A DNA stretch of 64,000 nucleotides, taken from positions 62,001 through 126,000 of the forward strand of contig NZ_AXVL01000009.1 of NCBI RefSeq assembly GCF_000482505.1. Direction: 5' to 3'. Numbering within the stretch: position 1 is the first letter of the stretch; every line of letters begins with the position of its first letter. Position numbers and translations under genes: made by a program. The DNA is from Leptotrichia trevisanii DSM 22070 (GTDB lineage: Bacteria > Fusobacteriota > Fusobacteriia > Fusobacteriales > Leptotrichiaceae). Positions 13,021 through 60,454 of this stretch are shown here, in pieces. The notes below the pieces were generated by a model. The model searched no databases and had not been told where the DNA came from. It saw only the letters and a program-made list of their open reading frames with translations.

Positions 13021-13144
13021 AATTTATAGTTTTAACCCTTTATAAAATAGCAATAAAGCTATCTTAACTAAAAAAGAGAAACAAATTAATCAAAAAACAA
13101 TTTTGATTTAATGGTGGTTTAATGATTATAGTGTATACTATATT

Positions 13145-13220
13145 CAGATCGATTAAAAGATCTGAAACCTCAATTAACCCCCCCTTTTATGGCCCTCTTT
13201 TTTAAGAGGGCTTTTGTCTT
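13145..13220 (+). ncRNA. Candidate small RNA with C-rich single-stranded region
   Basis: TATACT at 13134-13139 can start an RNA near 13145. It would contain a 5' hairpin (TTCAGATC 13143-13150 with GATCTGAA 13159-13166, perfect 8 bp), an unpaired stretch with seven consecutive C residues (13178-13184), and an intrinsic terminator (GCCCTC 13192-13197 with GAGGGC 13206-13211, then T-run). The -35 box is weak. C-rich unpaired seeds in other sRNAs target G-rich Shine-Dalgarno sequences. It could instead be only the argS 3' region. Confidence 0.5.
13192..13216 (+). terminator. Intrinsic terminator after argS / candidate sRNA
   Basis: A 6-bp GC-rich stem (GCCCTC/GAGGGC) with a T/A loop is followed by TTTTGTCTTTT. 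Confidence 0.8.
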
Positions 13221-13300
13221 TTGTAACTTTTTAGATTTAAAAAGACAAATAAAATAAGTTAGTAAATTTAAAAAAATAAATTATAGAAAAGAGGAGAACA

Positions 13301-19670: not shown

Positions 19671-20672
19671 CTATTCTTCCTCAAGAATTTTAATCAATTC
19701 CTCTTTACTTGGCAAAACTGTTTTATATGTACTTGCAAAAATTTGCTCATTATCTTCTGGCAACGTGTATTCCACCAAAGATTGATTTTTTTCCTGACAC
19801 AGTACTATTCCAATTGTTTTATTTTCATCATCTAATTTCATTTCTCTGTCATAATAATTTACATACATCTGCATTTGCCCTATATCCTGATGTTTTAATT
19901 TACCAATTTTCAAATCAATTAGGACAAAGCATTTCAAAAGTCTGTTATAAAAAACTAAATCAATGTAAAAATGCTGTTCATCAAAAGATATTCGTTTCTG
20001 TCTACCTACAAATGTAAAGCCATTCCCAAGTTCCAATAAAAAATTTTCTAATTTACTTATTAATTTTTCTTCCAGTTCACTTTCTGAATAACTGGACTGT
20101 TCTGGTAATCCTATAAATTCAAGTATATAAGGATCCTTTATCAAATCCTGTGGCTTTTCTATAATCTGTCCTTTTTGCGAAAGTTCCAAAACTTTCTTCT
20201 TATCTCTACTTAAACTCAACCTCGTATACAACGCACTATCAAACTGTCTTTCTAGTTCTCTTAAACTCCAATTGTTTTTCACAGCCTCAATTTCATAAAA
20301 TTTCCTTTCATCAGGATTTGAAATTCTACTTAATTTCACGTAATGCGACCAGCTCAGTTTGAATTGGTCAGACAGTGTCTGACCTTTTTCAGAATAAACT
20401 AAATAAAAACTCCTTATTTGTTTCAAATTTGTTAATGAAAATCCTTTTTTGTATTTTTCAGTCAACTTTTTAGATAATATTTTCAAAATTTTCTTTCCAT
20501 ATTCTGCCCTATTTTCACCTTTCTGCTCTTCCTCGACTATCATTCTTCCTATCTCAAAATACGTCAAAACCATCGTCTGATTAACAGTTGTAACAACTTT
20601 TTTTCTTGCATTTTCCAACAAATCAATTACATTTTTCACTATTTCCATATTTTCAATTTCTCTCTTTTTCAT
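19671..20672 (-). CDS. DUF1016 / YhcG-family PD-(D/E)XK nuclease domain protein
   Basis: A 333-residue protein. The N-terminal DUF1016 domain (residues about 10-150) contains YFEIGRMIVEEEQKGENRAEYGK and LSWSHYVKL. The C-terminal PD-(D/E)XK nuclease-like domain (about 190-320) contains FIDLVFYNRLLKCFVLIDLKIG-like elements, here YIDLVFYNRLLKCFVLIDLK followed by IGKLKHQDIGQMQMYVNYYD. Members are often linked to restriction, defence or mobile DNA, but a defined reaction is not established. AGGGGGAG precedes the ATG. It sits between aroA and a small membrane protein gene, which is odd for biosynthesis. The coding sequence holds a 19-bp palindrome (20366-20384) related to copies outside the gene. 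Confidence 0.88.
   Translation of the reverse strand: MKKREIENMEIVKNVIDLLENARKKVVTTVNQTMVLTYFEIGRMIVEEEQKGENRAEYGKKILKILSKKLTEKYKKGFSLTNLKQIRSFYLVYSEKGQTLSDQFKLSWSHYVKLSRISNPDERKFYEIEAVKNNWSLRELERQFDSALYTRLSLSRDKKKVLELSQKGQIIEKPQDLIKDPYILEFIGLPEQSSYSESELEEKLISKLENFLLELGNGFTFVGRQKRISFDEQHFYIDLVFYNRLLKCFVLIDLKIGKLKHQDIGQMQMYVNYYDREMKLDDENKTIGIVLCQEKNQSLVEYTLPEDNEQIFASTYKTVLPSKEELIKILEEE
20366..20384. repeat. 19-bp palindrome inside the YhcG-like gene
   Basis: GGTCAGACAGTGTCTGACC is a perfect inverted repeat with a single central base. It encodes the variable stretch just before the conserved LSWSHY motif. Related elements lie at 20711-20723, 20734-20746 and 22128-22140. Confidence 0.8.
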
Positions 20673-31728: not shown

Positions 31729-31800
31729 CTATTTTTGACTGCTAAAAATCAAAAACAATGTGATTATAACTGCCAAAACAGTCAAATCCCAATTTGCCAT
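31729..31800 (-). CDS. 23-residue hydrophobic peptide, candidate type I toxin
   Basis: The ATG at 31800 and TAG at 31729-31731 enclose 23 codons. The peptide begins MANWDLTVLAVIITLFLIF and ends SSQK: one transmembrane helix with a short polar C-terminus, similar in style to Fst and holin-like type I toxins. GGGGGTGG lies five bases upstream, a very strong SD. It has its own promoter (TTGAAT 31879-31884, 17 bp, TATAAT 31856-31861), a 5' hairpin TCAAGG/CCTTGA and a terminator, giving a predicted 188-nt mRNA. A short RNA encoded immediately upstream on the same strand can pair with the leader. Confidence 0.68.
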   Translation of the reverse strand: MANWDLTVLAVIITLFLIFSSQK

Positions 31801-31855
31801 TATTACCACCCCCTGTTCAAGAAAGTGTAATCAAGGTTGCGTTCCTTGACAGACA

Positions 31856-60277: not shown

Positions 60278-60308
60278 AAAAAAACCTGCAATAAATAATA
60301 ATTGCAGG
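60278..60308 (-). terminator. Terminator of the third toxin-like transcript
   Basis: CCTGCAAT and ATTGCAGG form an 8-bp stem followed by a T-run on the minus strand. Confidence 0.85.
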
Positions 60309-60336
60309 GAAAAAATTATTTTTTCATTTTGGGGTG

Positions 60337-60412
60337 TTATCTTCTACTTAGGATGTAGTAAATAACCACAAGTTGAACTAATATAAAACTATATCCCGTT
60401 CTATTTGGACAT
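60337..60412 (-). pseudogene. Hydrophobic small toxin-like ORF with a +1 frameshift
   Basis: An ATG at 60412 directly follows a strong GGGGGTG SD but reads only three codons before TAG. Removing one A from the AAA at the fourth codon restores 24 codons. They would read MSNRTGYSFILVQLVVIYY and end ILSRR at the TAA at 60337. The restored peptide has the size and helix of the peptide at 31729-31800. It is either decayed, read by slippage on the A-run, or started elsewhere. It has its own extended -10 promoter and terminator. Confidence 0.5.
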
Positions 60413-60454
60413 CACCCCCAATCATAATATGAATTAGGCAACGAACCCAAAAAT

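What the first reader, a model, noticed from the sequence alone, without database searches (positions are those of the whole stretch)
13134..13220. Candidate C-rich small RNA after argS
A promoter-like TATACT, a perfect 8-bp 5' hairpin, seven unpaired C residues and a clean terminator make a compact RNA of about 75 nt in the argS-downstream gap. The C-tract is complementary to G-rich SDs, including the GGGGGTG of the toxin-like mRNAs in this window. It could be a trans-acting regulator.
Basis: partly seen in the sequence, partly recalled or inferred. Interest (0 to 1): 0.5.

Follow-up and report, generated by a model that had tools for sequence, protein, structure and literature searches.

The report
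Conserved C-rich small RNA in Leptotrichiaceae
A short, strongly conserved RNA gene in Leptotrichia and its relatives carries an almost unchanging stretch of about 20 letters that, by sequence, pairs with and probably shuts off the translation start of a gene for a DNA-cutting surface enzyme.

Summary
Window 13134-13217 has a -10 box, a 5' hairpin, an unpaired linker AACCTCAATTAACCCCCCCTTT and a terminator. One exact copy of the linker core lies in each of 27 of 33 Leptotrichiaceae genomes (8 of 11 genera), none in 65 other Fusobacteriota genomes. The helices covary (16 of 17 pairs with changes on both sides) while the linker stays fixed. It is not an argS 3' UTR: argS is inverted or not adjacent in other genera. 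Best explanation: a trans-acting repressor covering the translation start of a DNase-I-like lipoprotein mRNA. Outside the RNA gene, a 13-nt complement occurs 9 times in 33 genomes, always at this gene's start. In two genera with different site sequences the gene ranks 2 of 376 and 1 of 363 sampled starts. Pairing is weak in Streptobacillus and weaker in the 5 genomes without the RNA. Seed design resembles FoxI of Fusobacterium, but the promoter is not sigmaE-type. No expression data.

The parts
13107..13123 (+). TTTAAT-N5-TTTAAT direct repeat (11-bp period) in the -35 region, possible response-regulator site
   Evidence: Exact repeat plus -10 in the own genome: 2 places, one is this. TTAAT-N6-TTAAT-N10-TATAMT in 13 same-genus genomes: the RNA promoter in all 13, plus 4 other places in 3 genomes. 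Not seen by eye in g9 and g11, imperfect in g3.
13134..13139 (+). -10 box TATACT (mostly TATAAT in other genera)
   Evidence: Read directly; same position relative to the RNA in the other loci.
13143..13166 (+). 5' hairpin, 8 bp, loop 8
   Evidence: 6 of 7 modelled pairs show changes on both sides, 97.5% of cells paired; wholly different hairpin sequence in g11.
13166..13187 (+). conserved single-stranded linker AACCTCAATTAACCCCCCCTTT, the seed: CCTC 13168-13171, AATTAA 13172-13177, C7 13178-13184
   Evidence: predicted pairing with the nuclease mRNA.
13191..13217 (+). intrinsic terminator (stem 13191-13212, loop 4) and T-rich tail
   Evidence: 10 of 10 modelled pairs with changes on both sides, 99.6% of cells paired.

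Best explanation
It is the gene of a roughly 70-nt base-pairing small RNA made from its own promoter. The 5' hairpin and the terminator protect the ends and hold the 22-nt linker open. The linker pairs with the translation start of a mRNA for a DNase-I-like lipoprotein: the C run covers the G-rich Shine-Dalgarno sequence, and AAUUAA/CCUC covers the spacer and the start-codon region, so ribosomes cannot load and the nuclease is not made. Shown by sequence: the gene, its conservation, the covarying helices, the fixed linker, the conserved complementarity. Inferred: that it is transcribed, that pairing happens in cells, that the effect is repression, and that a response regulator drives it in Leptotrichia. 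The linker stays fixed even where this target's site has changed or weakened, which implies further targets or a protein partner.
For: Exact linker core once per genome in 27 of 33 family genomes, 0 of 65 others in the phylum at up to 2 mismatches. Covariation over 23 distinct rows: 98.7% of cells paired, 16 of 17 pairs with double changes, 0 of 500 shuffles reach the covariation score; slid controls 27-51% paired (the alignment was fitted to the model). argS inverted or not adjacent in 7 of the 8 genera. Target: strongest duplex of 316, then of 705, sampled own-genome starts with the 26-nt linker; rank 2 of 705 with the 22-nt core; then rank 2 of 376 in G020 (g8) and 1 of 363 in G026 (g9), with different site sequences (the ortholog energies had been seen before these genomes were sampled). 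Among 226 ortholog groups of the samples its combined rank p is 2.9e-6, next best 0.023 (includes the own-genome rank by which it was chosen). The 13-mer GGGGTTRRTTGRG, modelled on the own-genome site and split over two calls: 27 RNA genes themselves plus 9 others, all 9 at this gene's start (8 in the genus, 1 in g4); the reversed control pattern gave 4 hits in all. Core pairing of -18 kcal/mol or stronger in 20 of 26 genomes with RNA and gene, in 0 of 5 without the RNA. The protein matches NCBIfam MnuA membrane nuclease (2.9e-21, under its cut-off) and DNase gamma (8.1e-9).
Against: No transcript data. In the own genome 6 of 40 shuffled linkers found a top hit as strong, and the 5th, 10th and 20th best hits are not above controls (25, 21 and 37 of 40 as strong), so single-genome prediction alone proves little. 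In g11 (Streptobacillus) pairing is -13.3 to -17.0 and not clearly better than shuffles (25-68 of 200 as strong); Leptotrichia G005 has only -11.8 and g6 -17.1. G004 has the RNA but no detected nuclease gene (88% complete). Two-strand folding that counts target self-structure is weak in G026 (-5.7), G023 (-8.6) and g11 (-0.3 to -9.5), while G027, which lacks the RNA, gets -11.7 with the own-genome RNA. The with/without contrast (Mann-Whitney p 3.7e-4) is not corrected for kinship, and G022 may lack the RNA only because it is 82% complete. G003 has ACG where other orthologs have a start codon. The screens used ORFs of at least 80 or 90 aa; a later scan of small ORFs found a candidate of similar strength in the window (-19.4).
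Confidence: 0.75

Rival explanations
1. It is a broad anti-Shine-Dalgarno regulator with many targets, chosen mainly by the C run, as reported for FoxI/FoxJ; the nuclease is only one of many, and small toxin-like peptide mRNAs could be others.
For: Linker unchanged in g8, g9 and g11 where the nuclease site differs or is weak. A 23-aa hydrophobic peptide start in the window pairs at -19.4. C-stretch seeds with several envelope targets are described for F. nucleatum (PMC11005410, sections read). Sampled genes cover only 764 of 2853 kb of the own genome. I raised this from 0.35 to 0.40; it does not exclude the best explanation.
Against: Apart from the nuclease, hits in 705 sampled starts are at control level and no other of 226 ortholog groups stands out. 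In 14 of the 15 g1/g3/g4 sites (all but G005) the non-C half of the linker matters: at most 2 of 200 half-shuffles do as well.
Confidence: 0.4
2. The conserved linker is a landing site for a protein (for example a KH-domain protein such as KhpA/KhpB, named from recall), and the complementarity to the nuclease is secondary or a sponge effect.
For: Conservation over about 20 nt exceeds what one drifting target would demand. C-rich single strands are typical KH-domain ligands (recalled).
Against: Does not explain why all 9 non-self occurrences of the 13-nt complement in 33 genomes sit on one start codon, nor the weaker sites in genomes without the RNA.
Confidence: 0.12
3. It is only the terminator and 3' UTR of argS, or a leader of the next gene.
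For: In Leptotrichia it begins about 120 nt behind argS on the same strand, and the next two genes look alike in g1, g3, g4, g6 and g8.
Against: In g3, g4, g6 and g8 argS runs the other way; in g5 another gene lies between; in g9 and g11 other genes flank it; the next genes differ in g5, g9 and g11 (by eye). A terminator separates it from the next gene and its own -10 box is conserved.
Confidence: 0.03
4. The RNA activates rather than represses the nuclease, or controls transcript decay in its operon.
For: FoxJ activates some targets (PMC11005410, abstract and discussion read). In the own genome the nuclease start follows another ORF by about 21 nt.
Against: The predicted duplex covers the Shine-Dalgarno sequence, spacer and start region, the classical blocking position.
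Confidence: 0.1

Closest known systems
FoxI of Fusobacterium nucleatum (PMC11005410, sections read)
   Same: Same phylum; C stretch in a long linear region as the seed; blocks translation of envelope-associated mRNAs; F. nucleatum is said there to lack Hfq and ProQ.
   Different: FoxI is sigmaE-dependent. Here the promoter has a standard -10 box and no ECF-type elements by eye, and among the 20 family genomes no short ECF-type hit exceeds 46 bits (G013 has two at 45.3), whereas all 13 genomes of other families there have one of 70 bits or more. The linker core, at up to 2 mismatches, is absent from all 65 genomes outside the family.
FoxJ of F. nucleatum (PMC11005410, sections read)
   Same: C stretch as seed.
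   Different: About 156 nt, C stretch in a hairpin loop, upstream of ylmH, sigmaE-dependent.
Firmicute C-rich sRNAs such as RoxS and LhrC (papers listed, not read) and RsaE (recall)
   Same: C-rich unpaired segments pairing with Shine-Dalgarno sequences (recall).
   Different: No sequence relation found; no Rfam family reaches its threshold here.

Membership tests
trans-acting base-pairing small RNA | own promoter and intrinsic terminator | tested here: met
   Conserved -10 box and covarying terminator; start site not mapped.
trans-acting base-pairing small RNA | gene placed away from its target, free-standing | tested here: met
   Own genome: RNA on C4, target on C69; flanking genes not constant between genera.
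trans-acting base-pairing small RNA | conserved unpaired seed with conserved target complementarity | tested here: met
   weak in g11 and G005.
trans-acting base-pairing small RNA | transcribed and regulates the target in cells | not testable with these tools
   No RNA-seq or genetics available.
FoxI/FoxJ sigmaE-dependent sRNAs | sigmaE (ECF) promoter | tested here: not met
   Promoters show -10 boxes with TTTAAT repeats, or TTGCAA-N17-TATAAT in g11 (by inspection); no short ECF-type hit above 46 bits listed for the 20 family genomes (list cut near E 7e-7).
FoxI/FoxJ sigmaE-dependent sRNAs | C-stretch seed in a linear region (FoxI) | tested here: met
FoxI/FoxJ sigmaE-dependent sRNAs | sequence homology to FoxI | tested here: inconclusive
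   Model R1 finds C-stretch RNAs in f2/g13 at E 2.7e-5 to 8.4e-5, aligned mainly on the C run and terminator; 24 of 65 genomes outside the family have some match at E 0.1 or better, mostly weak. FoxI itself was not identified.
any of 4227 Rfam 15 families | match at the gathering score | tested here: not met
   (only manA-II elsewhere in the window); sub-threshold hits of 13050-13300 lie far below their cut-offs.

The most novel reading that the evidence does not exclude
A family-wide RNA switch for extracellular DNA: in the Leptotrichiaceae, which seem to lack the sigmaE factor behind FoxI, a C-stretch RNA under a different (response-regulator-like) promoter has been kept with a fixed bipartite seed mainly to gate one surface DNase, and so DNA scavenging, biofilm DNA or DNA uptake. 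RNA and target site rise and decay together through the family.
Probability: 0.2. Interest if true: 0.65.

Novelty: new member of a known kind. Interest (0 to 1): 0.5.

Why it matters
To my knowledge small-RNA regulation in Fusobacteriota is known almost only from F. nucleatum. This gives a second family a conserved RNA with one named, testable target, a bipartite seed (Shine-Dalgarno plus start codon) and up to five natural genomes without it, and it suggests that C-stretch RNAs occur in the phylum independently of sigmaE. The target, a DNase-like lipoprotein, ties it to extracellular DNA in oral and animal-associated bacteria.

Tried and rejected
Phosphate (Pho) regulation of the promoter: suggested by the 11-bp direct repeats, but none of the 13 same-genus genomes examined has a PstS-family match, so dropped; the regulator is unknown. 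Regulon of the repeat: apart from the RNA promoter, 4 other places in 3 of 13 genomes and one AT-rich place in the own genome, not followed further. GGGGGG-N-ATG starts in the own genome: 15 matches, reversed control 10, no theme seen. Exact linker core outside the family in genome contigs: 5 of 12 loci are in unrelated organisms; by my own estimate a 17-mer falls about 30 times by chance in that collection, so they were set aside. First alignments A1 and A2 misaligned the hairpin in some rows; the model was built from 10 clean rows (A3) and the other loci served as a test. Six further matches (E 0.005 to 0.07), all on the strand opposite to the RNA, were dropped before counting pairs by tightening the threshold. 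In one search the G011 and G019 rows were cut wrongly; they were redone with start codons set by hand, where G003 was anchored at an ACG and G014 at a TTG.

Literature: the listings (14 of 16 papers listed; 12 of 1,362 listed) show no paper on a small RNA of Leptotrichia, Sebaldella or Streptobacillus. One caution: PMC11109978 (passages seen) reports 10 sRNA candidates over 50 genomes, Leptotrichia buccalis among them; its supplement was not open to me, so this RNA could be one of those.

Full report
By the same comparison g11 holds Streptobacillus notomytis (G031) and g9 a Sebaldella record (G023).

Observation. BLASTN over 33 family genomes gives a match of E 1.2e-4 or better at the element in 27; the other six have only short matches of E 0.003 to 0.17. 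The 17-mer ACCTCAATTAACCCCCC occurs without mismatch exactly once in each of the same 27 genomes (8 of 11 genera) and, at up to 2 mismatches, not at all in 65 further Fusobacteriota genomes; the missing ones are G001, G018, G019, G022 (82% complete), G027 and G028. The linker AACCTCAATTAACCCCCCCTTT is the same in all 27 copies except one C fewer in L023, while hairpin and terminator change. In g11 the hairpin is entirely different in sequence yet still a 9-10 bp hairpin next to the same linker. A covariance model from 10 rows recovers all 27 loci, g11 included, and pair counting gives 98.7% paired cells and 16 of 17 pairs with double changes; slid controls give at most 51%. The alignment for that count was fitted to the model, which favours it.

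Free-standing gene. In Leptotrichia the upstream gene is argS on the same strand. In g3, g4, g6 and g8 an argS-like gene is next but on the opposite strand; in g5 another gene lies between; in g9 and g11 other genes flank the RNA (identified by eye). The next two genes downstream look alike in g1, g3, g4, g6 and g8 and differ in g5, g9 and g11. No Rfam family matches and ARAGORN finds no tRNA or tmRNA in the window.

Promoter. A TATACT/TATAAT-like box is conserved. In Leptotrichia and most related genera a TTTAAT-N5-TTTAAT-like repeat takes the place of a -35 box; g11 has TTGCAA-N17-TATAAT instead, and g9 has neither clearly (by eye). The pattern finds the RNA promoter in 13 of 13 genus genomes and only 4 other places. 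This looks like a class II site of an OmpR-type regulator (inference). Phosphate control is unlikely, as the 13 genus genomes have no PstS match.

Target. Duplex energies of the 26-nt linker were computed for 316 and then 705 gene starts called in 764 kb of the own genome, window included, ORFs of at least 90 and 80 aa. The strongest is a gene on C69 (P0001; AAGGGGTTGATTGAG|ATG, -23.8 kcal/mol). Taken alone this is weak: 6 of 40 shuffled linkers did as well and the rest of the ranking is at control level. Further tests followed once the gene was chosen. (1) The 13-mer GGGGTTRRTTGRG was searched in 33 genomes in two complementary patterns. Apart from the 27 RNA genes it occurs 9 times (8, 1), and by coordinates every one is the start of this gene's ortholog: 8 in the genus, which share the site by descent, and one in g4. 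The reversed control pattern gave 2 hits in each call. (2) In G020 and G026, whose sites read GCGGGGGTTTTT|ATGAG and CAGGGGGTGTGTT|ATGAGG, the ortholog ranks 2 of 376 and 1 of 363 sampled starts; in G030 (g11) 15 of 336; in G028 and G018, which lack the RNA, 50 of 149 and 16 of 107. The ortholog energies had already been seen when these genomes were picked for sampling, and the stretches were placed to include the gene. (3) Over 226 ortholog groups of the samples its combined rank p is 2.9e-6, the next 0.023; the p includes the own-genome rank that singled it out.

With starts set by hand, core pairing is -18 or stronger in 20 of 26 genomes that have RNA and gene; the exceptions are G005 (-11.8), G017 (-17.1) and the four g11 genomes (-13.3 to -17.0). 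The five genomes without the RNA give -13.8 (G022), -11.3, -8.5, -7.6 and -3.4. Shuffling only the AACCTCAATTAA half while keeping the C run destroys the fit in 14 of 15 g1, g3 and g4 sites (at most 2 of 200 as good, G005 excepted); in g9 1 to 13, in g8 12 and 35, in g11 10 to 47 and in g6 82 of 200 do as well, so the C run carries more of the fit there. In g8 and g9 the CCUC side of the linker meets UGAG or UGAGG at the start codon in most printed duplexes. Two-strand folding with target self-structure gives -18.6 to -24.1 in 10 of 13 Leptotrichia rows (the others: G005 -11.8, G014 -11.9, G011 cut wrongly) and little in G026, G023 and g11.

The target protein has a lipoprotein-like signal in Leptotrichia (by eye; in g9 and g11 a signal without the cysteine). 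It matches Exo_endo_phos (4.3e-4, below cut-off), MnuA membrane nuclease (2.9e-21, below cut-off) and DNase gamma and DNase I structures (8.1e-9 and weaker). It is found in 31 of 33 family genomes. Activity was not tested.

Of three GGGGGTG in the window, one (31813, minus strand) is the Shine-Dalgarno sequence of a 23-aa hydrophobic peptide, MANWDLTVLAVIITLFLIFSSQK, with a TATAAT-like box upstream and a terminator-like hairpin downstream (by eye). It pairs with the linker core at -19.4, weaker than the nuclease (-22.3) but near the top of what the own genome offers, and 5th of 160 small-ORF starts scanned. Its exact start sequence occurs once in the window and in none of 314 loci held. Conservation could not be tested, so it stays a candidate.

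Comparison. F. nucleatum FoxI and FoxJ use C stretches to block translation of envelope mRNAs, FoxI's lying in a linear stretch, and both depend on sigmaE (PMC11005410: abstract, introduction, two results sections and the first part of the discussion read, passages elsewhere). The present RNA works like FoxI in seed design. It fails the sigmaE feature: no such promoter by eye, and no short ECF-type hit above 46 bits among 20 family genomes (two of 45.3 bits in G013), against one of 70 bits or more in 13 of 13 genomes of other families. R1 also finds C-run-plus-terminator RNAs in f2/g13 (E 2.7e-5 to 8.4e-5) whose upstream sequence looks ECF-like to me (AACTTT...GTCTAAA, consensus recalled). They may be FoxI relatives; shared descent with the Leptotrichiaceae RNA is open.

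Verdict. A genuine small-RNA family of the Leptotrichiaceae, not in Rfam 15, with a strongly supported predicted target and probably others. The kind is known; I found no description of this RNA, with the caution about PMC11109978 given under Tried and rejected.

Noticed in passing
31729-31800 (-), Shine-Dalgarno at 31813: 23-aa hydrophobic peptide ORF (MANWDLTVLAVIITLFLIFSSQK) with AGGGGGTGG Shine-Dalgarno, own -10-like box and terminator; looks like a small type I toxin-like gene and pairs with the RNA linker at -19.4 kcal/mol.
   Followed up: partly
60278-60426 (-): manA-II candidate riboswitch (RF04315, 152.6 bits); one GGGGGTG of the window lies inside it.
   Followed up: no
L120, L121 (about 1501-1576, -) and L123 (219-295 and 434-476, +): C-run plus terminator RNAs in genomes of another family (f2/g13), with ECF-like upstream sequence by eye; two lie close together in L123. 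Possible FoxI relatives.
   Followed up: partly
L182 (G003) near 1482 and L179 (G014) near 1455: Nuclease start codon position reads ACG in G003 and TTG with an inserted repeat in G014; the RNA-complementary block is kept in both. The G014 gene also appears interrupted near its 3' end (two matches with stops).
   Followed up: partly
19674-20672 (-): 333-aa ORF with an AAAAGGGGGAG Shine-Dalgarno; G-rich sites also precede an integrase-like ORF (L080).
   Followed up: no
L001, L009-L016, upstream of the TTTAAT repeats: AT-rich block AAATTAATCAAAAAACAATTTT strongly conserved upstream of the promoter in these nine Leptotrichia loci.
   Followed up: no
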